Source: a virus. Taken from it: 64,000 bases of DNA. Shown piece by piece: positions 25,076 through 62,472 of this stretch; the stretch's first letter is position 1, and the number at the start of each line of letters is the position of its first letter. Under the pieces are notes generated by a model that was given only the letters and a program-made list of their open reading frames with translations, was not told the origin of the DNA and searched no databases. Where the stretch lies: positions 17,501 through 81,500 of IMG/VR virus record IMGVR_UViG_3300023174_000134; one strand, given 5' to 3'. The translations under genes were made by a program, and so were the position numbers.

Positions 25076-25232
25076 GTTAAACTCCAATTAAAGTTGATAA
25101 TATAATCAGTTTGTCGCTATCAATCAGACCAAGATATCAAAGCAAGGATATCGGGAACTGTACCAAGCAAAGACTTACTAATTTGTGGTGAGTATTCTGT
25201 TACGAGGAACTCACCAAAACCCTAAGCAGTTT

Positions 25233-25265
25233 TTAGGCTGCTAATGCGAACTTATTATCGTTTGC
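25233..25265 (-). other. tmRNA proteolysis-tag reading frame (ANDNKFALAA-stop)
   Basis: Ten codons from the GCA resume codon to TAA. The ALAA end is the canonical ClpXP/ClpAP recognition sequence, and the AND...FALAA layout resembles betaproteobacterial tags such as ANDERFALAA as I recall them. The frame is embedded between an A-rich single-stranded stretch and the downstream pseudoknot, as in functional tmRNAs. Confidence 0.93.
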
Positions 25266-25348
25266 GTTTAATTTAATTTAGTTATTACGCCTACTCTGGC
25301 GACTCTCCATTGTTCTAATGATTGCCATGTCGAATCTATAACACCCCC

Positions 25349-25418
25349 ATCAAAAGTATATTGCCACAACTATAATGTGTGTTTGCTACCGATAACTCGG
25401 TTCGTCAATATACTTTTG
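25349..25418 (-). repeat. Inverted repeat of the tmRNA intervening segment
   Basis: CAATATACTTTTG (25406-25418, plus strand) and CAAAAGTATATTG (25351-25363) are perfect 13-bp inverted copies. In the minus-strand RNA they extend the acceptor stem past CCA and join the 3' and 5' tRNA-like ends through the spacer. A further small hairpin CCGA-GTTA-TCGG lies inside. This is the precursor loop expected to be removed when a permuted tmRNA matures. Confidence 0.9.
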
Positions 25419-25469
25419 GTGGAGGTGGGCGGATTTGCACCGCCGTCCACAACAACTTTCAAACAACTT

Positions 25470-25589
25470 CTACGAATGCTTAGCTACAAAAACAAGAACC
25501 ACAAAAATTACTAATGCAATTGCACACGCACCAGTATAAAATGCAAAACTTCTAATCTTCTTTTCTTTTACACAATTCTTATCTGGCAT
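25470..25589 (-). CDS. 39-aa membrane peptide ending inside the tmRNA acceptor piece
   Basis: An ORF from ATG 25587-25589 to TAG 25470-25472: a charged start MPDKNCVKEKKIRSF, then a membrane segment FYTGACAIALVIFVVLVFVA and KHS. Its last codons GTAGCTAAGCATTCGTAG are also the 5' part of the tmRNA acceptor piece. Its ATG overlaps the stop of the preceding 41-aa ORF (TAATG). Whether it is translated is unproven, but start/stop coupling and the membrane segment favour a real gene. Confidence 0.55.
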   Translation of the reverse strand: MPDKNCVKEKKIRSFAFYTGACAIALVIFVVLVFVAKHS

Positions 25590-49346: not shown

Positions 49347-50162
49347 TTAATACTCCGTCTTTCGGACAGTTTTTAGCCACTCTTGCTGTTTCTCATGGGT
49401 GGTTACTTCATTCTCATCCTTTTCCTTTGTCCAATGTATTATTTTCCATATACCTTCGTGGGTTTCTACTAATGCGGTACAGGATTCTACCCAATCGCCA
49501 TCGTTCATATACAGTATACCATTGAGTTCTTTTATCTCGGCATGGTGGATATGCCCACAAATGACACCATCATATCCTTTCTTTTTACAATACTCGGAAA
49601 TATTCTTTTCAAACCCTAGTAGGAAATCAGAGGCTTTCTTTACTTTATACTTTAGAAAGCGAGAGAGCGACCAATAGCCCAGCCCAAATTTACGGCGGAA
49701 GGCATTAAAGGTAGAATTCCAATTGAGCACCATATCATATAACTTATCACCAAGGAAAGTCAACCATGGTGCAAGTTTGGAGATACCATCAAATAAATCT
49801 CCATGTGTAACCAGTAATCGTTTACCATTGGCATCTATGTGCTCGGTCTGGTTGCATATCTGTATGGCACCGAAGCTTAGGCCATAGGGTATCATTGGTC
49901 GTAGGAATTCATCGTGGTTACCTGCAACATACACTACTCTGGTGCCTCGCTTGGCATGGCCTAGGATTCTTCGCACTACATTAGAATGAGATTGTTTCCA
50001 GCGCCACTTGTTTTGTTGTATTTTCCATGCATCAATAATATCACCCACAAGGTATAGAGTATCGCAAGTGTGGTGCTTCAGAAAATTATTCAGTTTCTCG
50101 GCCTGGCAATCACGGGTGCCAAGGTGAACATCGGAGATGAAGATACTACGATAGGTGTTCAT
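49347..50162 (-). CDS. LpxH-like metallophosphoesterase
   Basis: The protein has 271 residues. The motifs FISDVHLG, VGDIID, VAGNHDEFLRPM, THGDLFDGI and GVICGHIHHAEI are the full five-motif set of calcineurin-like phosphoesterases, in the arrangement of UDP-2,3-diacylglucosamine hydrolases (LpxH) and relatives. LpxH acts in lipid A synthesis at the inner membrane. Phage carriage suggests control of envelope lipids, but another nucleotide-type substrate cannot be excluded. Overlaps the 60-aa gene by 17 bases. Confidence 0.82.
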   Translation of the reverse strand: MNTYRSIFISDVHLGTRDCQAEKLNNFLKHHTCDTLYLVGDIIDAWKIQQNKWRWKQSHSNVVRRILGHAKRGTRVVYVAGNHDEFLRPMIPYGLSFGAIQICNQTEHIDANGKRLLVTHGDLFDGISKLAPWLTFLGDKLYDMVLNWNSTFNAFRRKFGLGYWSLSRFLKYKVKKASDFLLGFEKNISEYCKKKGYDGVICGHIHHAEIKELNGILYMNDGDWVESCTALVETHEGIWKIIHWTKEKDENEVTTHEKQQEWLKTVRKTEY

Positions 50163-53056: not shown

Positions 53057-53872
53057 TTAAGAAACTCTACAAGCAAGTCCAGTAAGTCCGCCACTATTGG
53101 TATTACCGGGTCCACCTGCCATCCATTTCCAAGTCCCCGATAAATTATTTTGTACTTCTTGTATAAATCCACAATTTGATCGCAACCAAGATGCTTGAAT
53201 TTGACCTTGACCACTACCTGCTGAATAATTACTTCCTGGAGTAAAATTAACAACAGAAGATCCGTTGCTATTGCCATTAACAAAACAATAACTTCCAACA
53301 GTATTAAATGTAGGACAAGCAACTACTAAGGTTCCAGTAGAAGTAATTGTTCCACCTGATAATCCATTACCAGTAGCAACTGAAGTTACTGTTCCAACAC
53401 CAGCAGTGTTAGCTTTTGCAAATGCGGAGTTAGCATATCCAGCGGCAGAGTTAGCTACGGCAAATCCACTATTTGCATATGAACCTGAAGCTGTTCCTGT
53501 ATTAGCAGTAGCAAATGCTGAGTTAGCATATGAACTAGCAGAAACTACCGTATTAGCAGTAGCAAATGCTGAGTTAGCATATGAACTAGCAGAAACTACC
53601 GTATTGGCAGTAGCAAATGCTGAATTGGCATATGAGCCAGAAGCTGTTGCTGTATTAGCGGCTGCAAACGCTGAATTGGCATATGAGCCAGAAGCTGTTC
53701 CTGTGTTAGCAGTAGCAAAGGCTGCATTGGCGTATGAGGCACCTGAATTCGCTATTGCTGAAGGGAGTAAGCCACTTTGTAGTTTGGCTAATGTGATGGT
53801 ACCATCCGCAATATCAGCGGCAATTACTGCGTTGTCTGCGATGGAATCTGCTGTGACTTTATTAAGAGGCAT
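53057..53872 (-). CDS. Tail fibre-like protein with SYANSAFATANT repeats
   Basis: The protein has 271 residues. N-terminus LNKVTADSIADNAVIAADIA, DGTITLAKLQSG is the adhesin-like head common in fibre proteins. Residues about 45-150 hold seven to eight repeats of the type SYANSAFATANT plus a short linker. Two of the repeat units are nearly identical 51-bp DNA repeats. The C-terminal Gly/Asn/Ser domain (VGSYCFVNGNSNGSSVVNFT, SWLRSNCGFIQEV) is a probable receptor-binding tip. A CATAAATA late box lies 26 bases upstream. Confidence 0.75.
   Translation of the reverse strand: MPLNKVTADSIADNAVIAADIADGTITLAKLQSGLLPSAIANSGASYANAAFATANTGTASGSYANSAFAAANTATASGSYANSAFATANTVVSASSYANSAFATANTVVSASSYANSAFATANTGTASGSYANSGFAVANSAAGYANSAFAKANTAGVGTVTSVATGNGLSGGTITSTGTLVVACPTFNTVGSYCFVNGNSNGSSVVNFTPGSNYSAGSGQGQIQASWLRSNCGFIQEVQNNLSGTWKWMAGGPGNTNSGGLTGLACRVS
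53526..53627 (-). repeat. Tandem 51-bp repeat inside the tail fibre gene
   Basis: Two near-identical 51-bp units (53526-53576 and 53577-53627) encode the 17-residue unit SYANSAFATANTVVSAS. Neighbouring degenerate copies extend the array from about 53420 to 53745. Slippage or recombination here would change fibre length by whole repeats without changing the frame. Confidence 0.85.
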
Positions 53873-56359: not shown

Positions 56360-56508
56360 TAATAATCTTCATCCTGCTCCATTTCGCTCTCCTGTATATA
56401 GGTTCCGCAAAATGAACAGTATGCTGGACTATCTTCTACTTCTCTTTCATCATATTCAATCTTAAACTTTGAATCACACTCAGAACATTTATGCTTTAAT
56501 ACGGTCAT
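56359..56508 (-). CDS. 49-aa zinc-ribbon protein
   Basis: An ORF from ATG 56506-56508: KHKCSECDSKFKIEYDEREV, then SPAYCSFCGTYIQESE. Two CxxC pairs separated by about 20 residues make a zinc ribbon. It may be a nucleic-acid-binding or transcription-factor-like protein. Start and stop overlap the neighbours by one base each. Confidence 0.7.
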   Translation of the reverse strand: MTVLKHKCSECDSKFKIEYDEREVEDSPAYCSFCGTYIQESEMEQDEDY

Positions 56509-56942
56509 TAATTACACCATGATTGCTTGGCTTCACCAAAATACTCACGAGCAAAACCATTTTTAATTAACATGGTGCGTAATGATTGGCCATTCAATAT
56601 GATATCGCCCAAAACACGGCCACCGAATTTATCCCACCCATACAACACAACTTGGCGCTGAGTGGAAGCTGATACTGCTTTCTTTGTGAATTCACTTGCG
56701 GCTTGTCCTCTGGCATCTTCTGAAGGGCATTGGGCTCTGTGTCCTTTTTCTGGAGTATCCACACCGAATATTCTAACGGCAAGCTCGGGTTTAAGTGGTG
56801 CAGGTAAAAAAGGAGCCGCTATGACAACAGTATCGCCATCGTTTACACGGACAATCTGAGCGTCATAGGTTACACCTTGAGGAGTTTTTTGTGCAAATGC
56901 TAACAATGGTGTTGCTAATAATACAAGTAATAATTTTTTCAT
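56508..56942 (-). CDS. Secreted thermonuclease (SNase family)
   Basis: The protein has 144 residues. Signal peptide MKKLLLVLLATPLLAFAQKT with an AFA site. RVNDGDTVVI, VRIFGVDTPEKGHRAQCPSE and DKFGGRVLGDIIL give the catalytic Arg, Asp, Thr, Glu, Arg of staphylococcal-type nucleases. The mature enzyme would act in the periplasm, perhaps degrading DNA of competing phages or released nucleic acid. The location is inferred from the signal peptide. Confidence 0.85.
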   Translation of the reverse strand: MKKLLLVLLATPLLAFAQKTPQGVTYDAQIVRVNDGDTVVIAAPFLPAPLKPELAVRIFGVDTPEKGHRAQCPSEDARGQAASEFTKKAVSASTQRQVVLYGWDKFGGRVLGDIILNGQSLRTMLIKNGFAREYFGEAKQSWCN

Positions 56943-56943
56943 T

Positions 56944-57648
56944 TTATTTCCTATTAATTTTTGCTAATTTCAAATAACTTAGTGTTTTAATCCAAAACCA
57001 ACCCATGTCAAATTCAAACCATTTTTCAGATAGTTTTGCACTTGCTGGTTTATTATGATGGTTATTATGTAGTTCTTCACCACCAATAATTAGACCCATT
57101 GGTATAATGTTTTTAGATGTGTCGTTTGTTTCTGTGTTACGATAACCCCAATAATGGCCAACACCATTGACTACACCTGCAGCCCAAAATGGAATCCAAG
57201 CCATCTGTATCAACCACATAACAATACCCCATCCGTGAAATAGATAGGTTTCAATAATCAATAATGCTATTACGCCTACAAGGCTATACTTTGAGTATAT
57301 ATTCTTCTCAATCCAATCGTCAGGTGTTCCTTTGCCGTATGCTTCAACCATTAATTTATCTTTTGATGCTTCGTGATATAGAAATGCACCACCAAATAAT
57401 ACACGCCAAATACCAAATATCTTTGGTGAGTGTGGGTCACCTTTTTGGTCGGTCATCTGATGGTGTTTACGGTGTATAGCAACCCATTGCTTGGTGACCA
57501 TGCCTGTTGTAAGCCATAGCCAAAATCGTATGAGATGTTCTAATACAGGATTAAATGTTACTGCTCGGTGTGCTTGACTGCGATGGAGATACATTGTAAC
57601 ACAAAGAATGGTGATGTGGGTCATCACCAATGTGTAGAGAATTAACAT
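56944..57648 (-). CDS. Membrane fatty acid desaturase (acyl-CoA/acyl-lipid delta-9 type)
   Basis: The protein has 234 residues. The three histidine boxes are present in order: HRSQAHR (about 22-28, HxxxxH), HRKHH (about 59-63) and HNNHH (about 198-202, HxxHH). Hydrophobic segments flank them (VMTHITILCVTMYL, LVGVIALLIIETYLF, WLIQMAWIPFWAAGVV). The length is shorter than bacterial enzymes (about 260-400) mainly at the N-terminus. The gene sits between NrdB and the secreted nuclease, with TAATG coupling to NrdB. It would introduce a double bond into host membrane lipids. Confidence 0.88.
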   Translation of the reverse strand: MLILYTLVMTHITILCVTMYLHRSQAHRAVTFNPVLEHLIRFWLWLTTGMVTKQWVAIHRKHHQMTDQKGDPHSPKIFGIWRVLFGGAFLYHEASKDKLMVEAYGKGTPDDWIEKNIYSKYSLVGVIALLIIETYLFHGWGIVMWLIQMAWIPFWAAGVVNGVGHYWGYRNTETNDTSKNIIPMGLIIGGEELHNNHHNKPASAKLSEKWFEFDMGWFWIKTLSYLKLAKINRK

Positions 57649-58652
57649 TAGGCGGCTTTACCCCAAACATCGTCCCATGTACCACTTAATGCACCCTTAG
57701 AATAATCTGTTGAACGGTTTTCAAAAAAGTTAGTGTGTGTTGGAGCATTAATCATTTCTTCAACCCATGGCAATGGATTGCGTTTGACTTTGAAAATGCC
57801 TTTCATGCCTAGGCCAATTAATCTGCGGTCAGCAATATAACGAATATATTGTTTAACATCAGCAGGTGTTAAACCTTCCATTTCACCCATACTAAAAGCA
57901 AGGTCAATGAATTTATCTTCTAATTCAACCATTTTTTCTGCAATGGCATAGATAGATTGTTTTAATTCATCATTCCATATTTCGGTGTTCTCATGCACAT
58001 AGGTCTTAAATAGTTTCATCATGGACTCAGCGTGCATTGTTTCATCAACGATTGACCATGTAATGATTTGACCCATGCCTTTCATTTTACCTTGGCGTGG
58101 AAAGTTTAGTAACATAATGAATGAGCTAAACAACTGCATACCTTCTGTAAAGGCTGAAAATACTGCAATATGTCGTGCTGTGTTTTCTTTGGTGCCGTTC
58201 TTATCTGAAATATCAAGCACATAATCATGCTTGTCTTTCATCTCCTGATACTCCATAAAATCATTATAGGTTGTGTCAGGCAGACCCAATGTTTCAATCA
58301 GGTGTGAATATGCCGCAATATGTAATGCTTCACGAGCTGCAAAGCCCATCAGCATCATACGCACTTCTGGTTGTGGAAAATATGGCAGATAGTTCTTTAC
58401 ATAACCACCTGCCACATCAATGTCGCCTTGTGTGAAGAAACGGAAAATATTGGTTAAAAAGTGTTTCTCAGCTGGTGTGAGTTTCTTTTTCCAATCTTTC
58501 ACATCTTCAAGCATTGGCACTTCTGTGTGTAACCAATGTGATTGCTCATGCTTCAACCATGCCTCATATGCCCATGGATAATTGAATGGTTTAAAACTGT
58601 TGCGTGTATCTGTTAATTTACTTTCTGTTTTCTTAATCATCTTTTCTCTCAT
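57648..58652 (-). CDS. nrdB: Ribonucleotide reductase small subunit (class I, NrdB)
   Basis: The protein has 334 residues. Metal-ligand motifs: Glu/His in AAREALHIAAYSHLIE (with the radical Tyr four residues after the His), Glu in SAFTEGMQLFSSF, and Glu/His in WSIVDETMHAESMM. NPLPWVEEMI and the C-terminus, DDVWGKAA, follow. It supplies the tyrosyl-radical cofactor for NrdA, encoded 0.9 kb upstream. An ATG at 58640 is a possible alternative start. Overlaps the 212-aa gene by 20 bases. Confidence 0.93.
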   Translation of the reverse strand: MREKMIKKTESKLTDTRNSFKPFNYPWAYEAWLKHEQSHWLHTEVPMLEDVKDWKKKLTPAEKHFLTNIFRFFTQGDIDVAGGYVKNYLPYFPQPEVRMMLMGFAAREALHIAAYSHLIETLGLPDTTYNDFMEYQEMKDKHDYVLDISDKNGTKENTARHIAVFSAFTEGMQLFSSFIMLLNFPRQGKMKGMGQIITWSIVDETMHAESMMKLFKTYVHENTEIWNDELKQSIYAIAEKMVELEDKFIDLAFSMGEMEGLTPADVKQYIRYIADRRLIGLGMKGIFKVKRNPLPWVEEMINAPTHTNFFENRSTDYSKGALSGTWDDVWGKAA

Positions 58653-59271
58653 ACATTACTGTGTTGGTGTTTCCTAGTGCCCATTTGGCCTCGGTTTCTA
58701 CTGACCATCTCTTAGTTGCTACTTTAAAATCTGGCATCTTTAATTCTTTTGGGTTACTACTTGGTTCTAATATAATCAACCTATTATTTGGTTGAGCAGC
58801 AAACTGCCCGTTATCACACATAACAAAATTATAAGACTTGTGATCCTCAACATCTTCGGAAAAGCCAGTATCAAGAGTATTAAAATCAGGATGGGCACTA
58901 TCAACTGTGAAAAGGTATACCCCATACATCCAATCTCCATTTTTCAACTTAAACTTACATTTCATGGATTGTAACTGTGCTTTCTTTAGAACAGTAATAT
59001 CATATGATAAACAATCCCATAACTGTAAACTATCTAGTGGTTGTGGAGTGCCTTCAATTGGTTTCCAACAAAATGCGTGTAGTGGTAGTTTGTCATACAA
59101 TGCACCATATTCATTTAAATAGGCCTCAATGCGAAACGCTTGGCCTCGTAACGATTTGATACTTACCCACCAACATGGCTCAAGTTCTCCATGACCTTTT
59201 TCAAAGTCATAGAGAAATTCTTTACGAACAAAACATTTTACCGGTGGTAAATTTGCTACAATGTGTGCCAT
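58633..59271 (-). CDS. Conserved protein of the phage nrd operon
   Basis: The protein has 212 residues from the ATG at 59271, which overlaps the TAA of the Fe-S carrier gene (TAATG); an ATG at 59301 is also open. AHIVANLPPVKCFVRKEFLY, DFEKGHGELEPCWWVSIKSL and LDSLQLWDCLSYDITVLKKA are characteristic of a family always found next to phage RNR genes, as I recall from cyanophages. Function unknown. Confidence 0.8.
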   Translation of the reverse strand: MAHIVANLPPVKCFVRKEFLYDFEKGHGELEPCWWVSIKSLRGQAFRIEAYLNEYGALYDKLPLHAFCWKPIEGTPQPLDSLQLWDCLSYDITVLKKAQLQSMKCKFKLKNGDWMYGVYLFTVDSAHPDFNTLDTGFSEDVEDHKSYNFVMCDNGQFAAQPNNRLIILEPSSNPKELKMPDFKVATKRWSVETEAKWALGNTNTVMYERKDD

Positions 59272-59594
59272 TAAAAACCCACCGATGAACCGCAACCGCA
59301 AGAAGATTTTACATTTGGATTACTAATTACAAACCTTGATTCAAAAGGCTTTTCAACATAATCTAATGTTGCTTCATTTAAGTATTCCATTGACATATAA
59401 TCCACTATTAGTTTAACATCTGTTGCTTCAAAAACAAAATCATCTTCTTCTATTGTATCTTCAAAAGTAAAAACATATTCAAAGCCATTACAACCACCGC
59501 CTCTGAGAGCAACCCTCAAACCTTTTAATTTAGGTTCGTTTTCTTCAATAATTAAATCACGAATTCTTTCAGCGGCAGCCTTTGTTAGTTTCAT
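59271..59594 (-). CDS. A-type Fe-S cluster carrier (IscA/ErpA/HesB family)
   Basis: The protein has 107 residues, the family's usual length. ALRGGGCNGFEYVFTFED holds the first Cys, and NVKSSCGCGSSVGF holds the CxC pair at the C-terminus. It would carry Fe-S clusters to targets. Its place in the nrd operon suggests support of the metal-dependent NrdB or other Fe enzymes (2OG oxygenase, desaturase) during infection (inference). Confidence 0.92.
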   Translation of the reverse strand: MKLTKAAAERIRDLIIEENEPKLKGLRVALRGGGCNGFEYVFTFEDTIEEDDFVFEATDVKLIVDYMSMEYLNEATLDYVEKPFESRFVISNPNVKSSCGCGSSVGF

Positions 59595-61403: not shown

Positions 61404-62435
61404 TTATACTTTCTTCCAAAAAACAAATTTGGTCTGTGCTTGTAAACCGTTAAATGTGTTACTACTTATAATACTTTCAATCTCACCAACTGATATGCCA
61501 CTCATAACCATTTCATTGACATCTTTTGCTTGTATAGTATTAGGCCAAATGACGATATGGTGATTGGATTTGATGCTTTCTTGCATCATCTTCACAATTT
61601 CTTTATTGCGTGGTTCATTATCAAATATTAAAACTTTCTTACCTGCTGAAATATTTTCTGCAACAATAGCAAGATTAGCATCAGCACTTGCAATGCAATT
61701 CTTTACAAATAAACTATCAAGGGGACCTTCAACAACACGGACAGGTTCGTGAACACTCACTCTATCCATACCAAACACCAATTTTTCTTCACTATTAGTG
61801 GTGCGAATGGTTATATATCTAAGTGTTTTATCGGAGGTTTCTAATGCACGGCCTGATACAGCAATCAGGTTATTATACACATCATAGAATGGTATAATAA
61901 CTCGAGCATCATCAATCAATTTCTTGCCATGGTTAGGCACCAAGGCATCTATAAACTTCTTATAGTGTGATGTGAATAATAGGTCTTTGTAGAACCTATC
62001 TGGAATTTTACGATTCTTTAGATATGCTAAGCAAAAATGCTCACTTGATAGGTTAGAACAGAACTCGGCGTGCTCAAAGATTTTTGGTTTGTCAAGTTTA
62101 TCAAATCTTGGCGAGGGTACGTTGAATGTTGGCTCCTTAAAATTGGAGAAACCGGATTCACCTGATTTATACCGTTCAAGGACATATTCCTTGTATAAAC
62201 TACCATCTACATTCTCCAATAATTTACCTAGACTTGTACCTATTCCACAATTTTTGCACGAATAGAATAGATTGTTGCCTTTCTTATACACATACCCACG
62301 AGCCTTGAGGAGATTCTTCTTAGAATCACCGCAAATCGGGCATGAGAAATTCCAAAGGTAATCTTGCTTACGCTTGAAGTTTCTCAGACGATGGGAAATT
62401 AGTCCAATATATTTGGACTCTACACTTAAACTCAT
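61404..62435 (-). CDS. gp61: DNA primase gp61
   Basis: The protein has 343 residues (T4 gp61 342). Zinc finger CPICGD (Cys32, Cys35) with CKNCG (Cys60, Cys63), a TOPRIM-like VVEGPLDSLFVKN (about 238-250) and KKVLIFDNEPRNKEIV. It makes RNA primers for lagging-strand synthesis with the gp41 helicase. Start at 62435 is eight bases after the consensus TATAAT, so the transcript has almost no leader. Confidence 0.9.
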   Translation of the reverse strand: MSLSVESKYIGLISHRLRNFKRKQDYLWNFSCPICGDSKKNLLKARGYVYKKGNNLFYSCKNCGIGTSLGKLLENVDGSLYKEYVLERYKSGESGFSNFKEPTFNVPSPRFDKLDKPKIFEHAEFCSNLSSEHFCLAYLKNRKIPDRFYKDLLFTSHYKKFIDALVPNHGKKLIDDARVIIPFYDVYNNLIAVSGRALETSDKTLRYITIRTTNSEEKLVFGMDRVSVHEPVRVVEGPLDSLFVKNCIASADANLAIVAENISAGKKVLIFDNEPRNKEIVKMMQESIKSNHHIVIWPNTIQAKDVNEMVMSGISVGEIESIISSNTFNGLQAQTKFVFWKKV

Positions 62436-62443
62436 AATATAGG

Positions 62444-62472
62444 ATTATAACAAAATACTACTGAATTGTCAA
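62444..62472 (-). promoter_or_regulatory. Consensus sigma70 promoter of the primase operon
   Basis: Minus strand TTGACA (62472-62467), 17 bases, TATAAT (62449-62444), CCTATATT, ATG. A perfect sigma70 consensus without the cassette hairpin. It reads through primase, nrdA, the Fe-S carrier, nrdB and the desaturase as a possible single early transcript. Confidence 0.92.

What the first reader, a model, noticed from the sequence alone, without database searches (positions are those of the whole stretch)
56944..57648. Fatty acid desaturase inside the ribonucleotide reductase operon
All three histidine boxes of membrane desaturases are present in a 234-aa ORF coupled to nrdB. A phage desaturase could raise membrane fluidity for lysis, cold adaptation or altered receptor function. 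Both enzymes are diiron proteins and an Fe-S carrier lies in the same operon, hinting at shared metal needs.
Basis: partly seen in the sequence, partly recalled or inferred. Interest (0 to 1): 0.65.

Follow-up and report, generated by a model that had tools for sequence, protein, structure and literature searches.

The report
Phage lipid desaturase without bacterial tail
A T4-like phage, probably infecting betaproteobacteria, carries a real and well-conserved membrane-lipid desaturase as the last gene of its DNA-precursor operon; it belongs to an old phage-only branch of the bacterial DesA enzymes that lacks their C-terminal tail domain, and many of its relatives travel with iron-sulfur assembly genes.

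Summary
Window 56944-57648(-) encodes a 234-aa membrane desaturase whose ATG overlaps the nrdB stop (TAATG). All ten diiron ligands (9 His + Asn161) are present and invariant in 86 distinct viral relatives. AlphaFold2 (pLDDT 93.9) matches mouse SCD1 (6wf2, TM 0.76). NCBIfam places it just above the DesA-family cut-off (402 vs 400 bits), on only the first 60% of the profile.

New points. (1) Bacterial DesA almost always carries an extra ~145-aa DesA/ISL3 helical tail; no viral copy does. (2) All viral copies form one clade (99/92) nested in proteobacterial DesA and joined with a few chromosomal tail-less bacterial DesAs (100/96): one old transfer, not repeated host capture. (3) RNR linkage is local: 22 of 85 viral loci have RNR genes nearby, and only 9 of 80 close nrdB relatives have the desaturase; L277 shows the empty site. 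(4) IscA and/or IscU lie within 5 kb in 23 of 85 loci, and 8 of 11 large desaturase-phage records carry an IscA-type carrier: suggestive, not proven.

Phage desaturases and phage Fe-S genes are already known, so this is a new variant of a known kind. Activity, substrate and benefit remain inferred.

The parts
56944..57648 (-). Tail-less DesA-family membrane desaturase, 234 aa
   Evidence: Pfam PF00487 8e-16; NF049918 402 bits over profile 10-241/385; AF2 pLDDT 93.9; SCD1 fold match
57568..57585 (-). Histidine box 1, HRSQAH, residues 22-27
   Evidence: sequence; H22 and H27 invariant in 86 viral sequences
57460..57474 (-). Histidine box 2, HRKHH, residues 59-63
   Evidence: sequence; H59, H62, H63 invariant
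57154..57168 (-). NGVGH, residues 161-165: Asn and His ligands of the SCD1-type site
   Evidence: aligned with SCD1; N161 and H165 invariant
57055..57069 (-). Histidine box 3, HNNHH, residues 194-198
   Evidence: sequence; H194, H197, H198 invariant
57648..58652 (-). nrdB, ribonucleotide reductase small (R2) subunit, stop codon overlaps the desaturase start
   Evidence: PF00268 1.4e-78; TAATG junction
58633..59301 (-). PHROG 3704 protein, labelled 'ferredoxin' in PHROGs but without a Pfam match
   Evidence: phrog_3704 9.5e-82; no Pfam family
59271..59594 (-). ErpA/IscA-type Fe-S cluster carrier
   Evidence: NF010147 128 bits vs cut-off 117; PF01521
59594..61426 (-). nrdA, ribonucleotide reductase large subunit
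   Evidence: PF02867 4.7e-108
61404..62435 (-). Primase-like gene at the head of the run
   Evidence: phrog_47 DNA primase 1.8e-62
56508..56942 (-). SNase-like nuclease, next gene downstream; in L277 it follows nrdB directly
   Evidence: PF00565 1.9e-11
62444..62472 (-). Candidate promoter of the run (TTGACA-17-TATAAT, extended -10)
   Evidence: 12/12 consensus match; promoter-like hits as a whole are not enriched over shuffles, so a candidate only

Best explanation
It is a catalytically competent, phage-adapted acyl-lipid desaturase of the DesA family. SHOWN: the catalytic core and all ten diiron ligands are intact and under purifying selection; the C-terminal DesA/ISL3 tail of nearly all bacterial relatives is missing; all sampled viral copies descend from one tail-less lineage; the gene overlaps the nrdB stop codon. 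INFERRED: it is made together with ribonucleotide reductase, inserts in the host inner membrane, takes electrons from a host ferredoxin or reductase (no ferredoxin was found in the phage records) and O2, and introduces a cis double bond (by homology delta-9) into acyl chains of existing membrane phospholipids. This would change membrane order within one infection cycle without new fatty-acid synthesis. Many relatives also bring IscA/IscU, which could help mature the Fe-S electron donor and other Fe-S proteins during infection. Why the tail is dispensable is unknown; loss of a regulatory or localising domain is the simplest guess.
For: Family: Pfam 8e-16, NF049918, about 61% identity to Achromobacter DesA. 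Fold: pLDDT 93.9; mouse SCD1 with diiron centre 6wf2 E=1.2e-7, TM 0.76. Ligands 10/10 invariant in 86 viral and 97 bacterial sequences. dN/dS 0.12-0.31. Tail: viral ORFs end 0-15 aa after the core, 78 of 80 bacterial ORFs run 140-155 aa further, the other two being cut by contig ends; the tail is PF01610-like and NF049919 DesA_ISL3_tail; absent from 11 of 11 large viral records. Tree: viral clade 99/92, with tail-less bacterial DesA 100/96. Substrate: P. aeruginosa DesA is an sn-2 phospholipid delta-9-desaturase (PMC10269440); a 394-aa relative with the same box spacing raises palmitoleate in E. coli (PMC4975390). Fe-S neighbours. Phage identity: baseplate, tail-tube and gp32-like SSB proteins.
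Against: No activity data. The experimentally tested DesA relatives are of full length (394 aa), so activity of a tail-less core is assumed. No ferredoxin (Fer2) was found in the window's record or in 10 other desaturase-phage records, so the electron donor is unknown. RNR linkage is not conserved. The Isc-desaturase link is partly phage-lineage inheritance, and among nrdB loci it is not significant (Fisher p=0.10).
Confidence: 0.77

Rival explanations
1. It is a histidine-box diiron enzyme of the same fold acting on another substrate or with another chemistry (lipid hydroxylation, another lipid class, or a different double-bond position).
For: Histidine-box membrane enzymes include hydroxylases (a weak FA_hydroxylase score, E 0.023, appears for one bacterial relative); ligand identity does not fix regio- or substrate selectivity; the tail is missing; several viral relatives fall just below the NF049918 cut-off.
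Against: 55-61% identity to bacterial DesA over the whole core without large gaps; the window protein passes the NF049918 cut-off; the only good solved matches are acyl desaturases.
Confidence: 0.15
2. It is a decaying or passenger gene carried in a hot spot for accessory genes behind nrdB, without a function in lipid metabolism.
For: Present in only 9 of 80 close nrdB relatives; it sits in several different neighbourhoods; L018 has lost the third box by an in-frame deletion; dN/dS is higher than for nrdB.
Against: All ten ligands invariant in 86 distinct viral sequences of one old clade; dN/dS 0.12-0.31; reading frames intact in nearly all loci.
Confidence: 0.05
3. Its role is tied to RNR: both are iron enzymes and the operon is an iron-cofactor module in which the carrier serves NrdB and the desaturase together.
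For: Gene order nrdA-ErpA/IscA-3704-nrdB-desaturase; 10 of 22 RNR-linked viral loci also have IscA.
Against: 63 of 85 viral desaturase loci have no RNR gene within 5 kb (some are short contigs) and 71 of 80 nrdB relatives have no desaturase nearby. A-type carriers deliver Fe-S clusters rather than assembling non-haem diiron sites (established knowledge).
Confidence: 0.1

Closest known systems
Bacterial DesA (P. aeruginosa PA0286; Pseudomonas sp. A3 PA3FAD9), NCBIfam NF049918
   Same: Catalytic core, box motifs and spacing; 55-61% identity to proteobacterial members
   Different: Bacterial proteins are about 385-395 aa with a DesA/ISL3 alpha-bundle tail; the phage protein stops after the core. 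PA0286 itself was not compared here
Rare tail-less chromosomal DesA of some proteobacteria (L239, L240, L242)
   Same: Core only; joined with the viral clade at 100/96
   Different: Chromosomal, in a conserved bacterial neighbourhood (L239 and L240 share neighbours); 56-60% identical
Other phage desaturases: cyanophage (Roitman 2018, not held), Arctic brine vFAD (PMC7300359), Baikal VP_1723 (PMC7678222)
   Same: Membrane desaturase with histidine boxes in a phage; in Baikal also with an Fe-S biogenesis gene
   Different: No homologue below E=1e-5 among 50,697 phage records; the nearest, Pelagibacter phage Mosig, is 25% identical. The Arctic and Baikal sequences could not be compared
Mouse/human stearoyl-CoA desaturase SCD1 (6wf2, 4ymk, 4zyo)
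   Same: Fold and ten-ligand diiron site
   Different: About 21% identity; acyl-CoA substrate, cytochrome b5 partner (established knowledge)
Marine T4-like viral genomes with IscU/A-type carrier genes (PMC5332604)
   Same: Phage-borne Fe-S assembly genes
   Different: No desaturase is mentioned in that paper

Membership tests
Membrane FA_desaturase (PF00487) | Score above the curated cut-off (29.7 bits) | tested here: met
   59 bits, 8e-16
Membrane FA_desaturase (PF00487) | Three histidine boxes and SCD1-type diiron ligand set | tested here: met
   9 His and Asn161 present and invariant in relatives
Membrane FA_desaturase (PF00487) | Desaturase fold of an integral membrane protein | tested here: met
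   AF2 pLDDT 93.9; SCD1 TM 0.76
DesA family (NF049918) | Equivalog cut-off of 400 bits | tested here: met
   402.3 bits for the window protein, marginal; L042, L061, L185 and L030 score 378-399
DesA family (NF049918) | Full-length profile including the DesA/ISL3 tail | tested here: not met
   Profile 10-241 of 385 only; tail absent. Tail-less bacterial members pass the same cut-off, so the tail is typical rather than required
DesA family (NF049918) | Delta-9 desaturation of phospholipid acyl chains | not testable with these tools
   Known for P. aeruginosa DesA (PMC10269440); needs expression and lipid analysis
ErpA/IscA-type Fe-S carrier (neighbour) | Curated score and conserved C-terminal CGCG motif | tested here: met
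   NF010147 128 bits vs 117...SSCGCGSS.. in the sequence

The most novel reading that the evidence does not exclude
Aquatic T4-like phages carry a dedicated lipid-remodelling and iron module: a tail-less, possibly deregulated DesA plus their own IscU/IscA supply, in some cases with a Dps-like protein and an LpxH-like hydrolase nearby, so that membrane unsaturation and the loading of iron enzymes are controlled together during infection; the ISL3-like tail that phages lack is the host's brake on DesA.
Probability: 0.2. Interest if true: 0.75.

Novelty: new variant of a known kind. Interest (0 to 1): 0.5.

Why it matters
It shows that a membrane-lipid desaturase can be a long-standing phage gene family rather than a repeated recent theft from hosts, and it offers a natural experiment on an unexplained domain: bacteria keep the DesA/ISL3 tail almost always, the sampled phages never. 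That makes the function of the tail directly testable (same core, with and without). The recurrent IscA/IscU neighbours suggest that phages rich in iron enzymes bring their own cofactor assembly, a link noted before in marine viral genomes (PMC5332604) but not, in the papers read here, tied to RNR plus a desaturase.

Tried and rejected
Repeated host capture: rejected, one viral clade. Long-form viral copies: L183-L186 first appeared to match DesA 1-334, but the ORF stops after the core and the DNA downstream is an unrelated gene. Relic of the tail downstream of viral genes: none found. A phage ferredoxin as electron donor: none in 11 records; the PHROG 'ferredoxin' label of the neighbour at 58633-59301 is not supported by Pfam, nor by a Fer2 search of the record. 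Conserved RNR linkage: not supported. Acinetobacter 'phage' MD-2021a hits: the annotated neighbours look bacterial, so ignored. Roitman 2018 was not in the library.

Full report
OBSERVATION. The ORF at 56944-57648 on the minus strand is real. It overlaps the nrdB stop codon by one base (TAATG). Pfam gives FA_desaturase at 8e-16. NCBIfam gives NF049918 'DesA family fatty acid desaturase' at 402 bits against a cut-off of 400, but only over profile positions 10-241 of 385. The order on the minus strand is primase-like gene, nrdA, ErpA/IscA, PHROG 3704, nrdB, desaturase, SNase-like nuclease, SegE-like GIY-YIG, PhoH. The window is bases 17501-81500 of an 81.5-kb IMG/VR virus record. Baseplate wedge, tail tube and a gp32-like SSB mark it as a T4-like tailed phage. 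A permuted tmRNA scoring as betaproteobacterial (RF01850), and nrdB hits to Alcaligenes and Bordetella phages among the best, point to a betaproteobacterial host; this is inference.

CATALYTIC SITE AND FOLD. Boxes HRSQAH, HRKHH and HNNHH plus N161 and H165 align with the ten diiron ligands of SCD1 (the SCD1 ligand list is established knowledge). All ten are invariant in 86 distinct viral and 97 distinct bacterial sequences (rows with a core under 215 residues, such as the deletion variant L018, were left out). AlphaFold2 with 76 aligned homologues gives mean pLDDT 93.9; the only good solved matches are SCD1 structures, first 6wf2 at E=1.2e-7, TM 0.76. Pairwise dN/dS against near relatives is 0.12-0.31: clear purifying selection, though weaker than on nrdB.

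RELATIVES. Two scans of IMG/VR gave about 157 viral loci, some of them two cuts of one contig. In all complete ones the ORF ends 0-15 residues after the core. Of 80 bacterial loci, 78 continue for 140-155 residues and the other two run off the contig. The extension matches Pfam DDE_Tnp_ISL3 (E 1.6e-7 to 1.7e-13) and NCBIfam NF049919 'DesA/ISL3 alpha bundle tail' (130 bits). In a full-length model of the Achromobacter protein it is all helical. It is absent from 11 of 11 large desaturase-carrying virus records, and no relic lies downstream of the viral genes. Among 229 genomes of the class of Achromobacter, 114 have a homologue and nearly all are long-form. Tail-less chromosomal forms occur in three (L239, L240, L242), in one with a short tail of other sequence (L241) and in more distant paralogues (L244, L245).

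TREE. A quick tree of 119 rows puts all 59 viral rows on one branch (SH-aLRT 99). A careful tree of 87 rows gives the viral clade 99/92, and viral plus three tail-less bacterial rows 100/96 (its bootstrap had not fully settled). The simplest reading is one transfer involving a tail-less DesA lineage, followed by long diversification in phages. The direction between phage and the tail-less bacteria is not fixed by the tree. Both viral scans used queries from this family, so more distant phage desaturases are under-sampled.

CONTEXT. In 85 distinct viral loci, 22 have RNR genes within 5 kb, 23 have IscA and/or IscU (13 of these without RNR) and 7 have a Dps-like gene; others sit beside T4-type capsid genes or DNA polymerase (IscU, Dps and capsid labels were given by eye from the sequences, IscA and RNR by homology to the window's genes; NifU_N and gp23 profiles later confirmed such genes in whole records). 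The arrangements differ (convergent DES/IscA; IscU-IscA-DES; IscU-DES-IscA; DES-IscU-IscA). On the desaturase tree the Isc neighbourhood needs at least 9 changes and the RNR neighbourhood at least 8. Conversely, only 9 of 80 contigs with nrdB close to the window's carry a desaturase. In L277 the order is IscA, 3704, nrdB, SNase, with no desaturase, so the gene is gained or lost as a single unit behind nrdB. Genome-wide, 8 of 11 large records carry an A-type Fe-S carrier and 4 of 11 a NifU_N (IscU-type) protein. In 50,697 phage records the window's IscA finds 11, of which I judge only two (uncultured giant phages) likely to be genuine phages. This contrast uses different search sensitivity and related phages, so it is suggestive. 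Within nrdB loci alone the Isc-desaturase link is not significant (p=0.10).

MECHANISM. DesA of P. [quoted passage not shown] A 394-aa relative with the same motifs raises palmitoleate in E. coli (PMC4975390). By homology, the phage enzyme would desaturate acyl chains of the host's existing phospholipids using O2 and a host electron donor; no Fer2 ferredoxin was found in any of the 11 records. Timing with RNR, effect on fluidity and benefit to the phage are inference. Models of that kind were published for Arctic phages (PMC7300359).

KNOWN OR NEW. Phage desaturases are known (cyanophages; Arctic brine; Baikal, where one population also has an Fe-S gene, PMC7678222), and so are phage Fe-S assembly genes (PMC5332604). 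Not found in the papers searched: a tail-less DesA phage clade, or its place in an RNR operon. None of the 50,697 phage records has a homologue below E=1e-5. Hence: new variant of a known kind, interest moderate.

Noticed in passing
window 25159-25509 (-): Phage-encoded permuted tmRNA scoring as betaproteobacterial (RF01850), tag ANDNKFALAA; hints at a betaproteobacterial host.
   Followed up: partly
window 49347-50162 (-); L026, L042, L051, L071, L075: LpxH-like metallophosphatase, 91% identical in phages whose desaturases are only about 68% identical; in those loci it lies 1-2.5 kb from the desaturase. Below the curated LpxH cut-offs.
   Followed up: partly
window 58633-59301 (-): PHROG 3704 is labelled 'ferredoxin' and several cyanophage records call it purM, but it has no Pfam match, the record has no Fer2 match, and it recurs in phage RNR operons: likely a propagated misannotation.
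   Followed up: partly
L082-L161 and other bacterial DesA: Nearly all bacterial DesA carry a C-terminal domain shared with ISL3 transposases (NF049919); I found no account of its function.
   Followed up: partly
L018 2635-3228: A near-identical viral copy with an in-frame deletion of about 36 residues that removes the HNNHH box; decay or assembly artefact.
   Followed up: no
G005 (399.8-kb virus record of L030), 302565-303167 and 309422-310063: A large-genome virus with two further, distant (31-32%) desaturase-like genes besides the DesA-type one.
   Followed up: no
L030, L169, L179, L194, L204, L218, L225: Dps-like ferritin-fold genes near the desaturase in seven viral loci; identified from the sequence by eye, not by a profile search.
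   Followed up: no
window 53057-53872 (-): Repeat-rich tail-fibre-like ORF (ANT..GSYANSAFA repeats) with a long open frame on the opposite strand.
   Followed up: no
window 56944-58652 against L008-L015: nrdB is nearly identical to the window (dS 0.01-0.07) while the adjoining desaturase has dS 0.23-0.27: a likely recombination boundary at the nrdB/desaturase junction.
   Followed up: no
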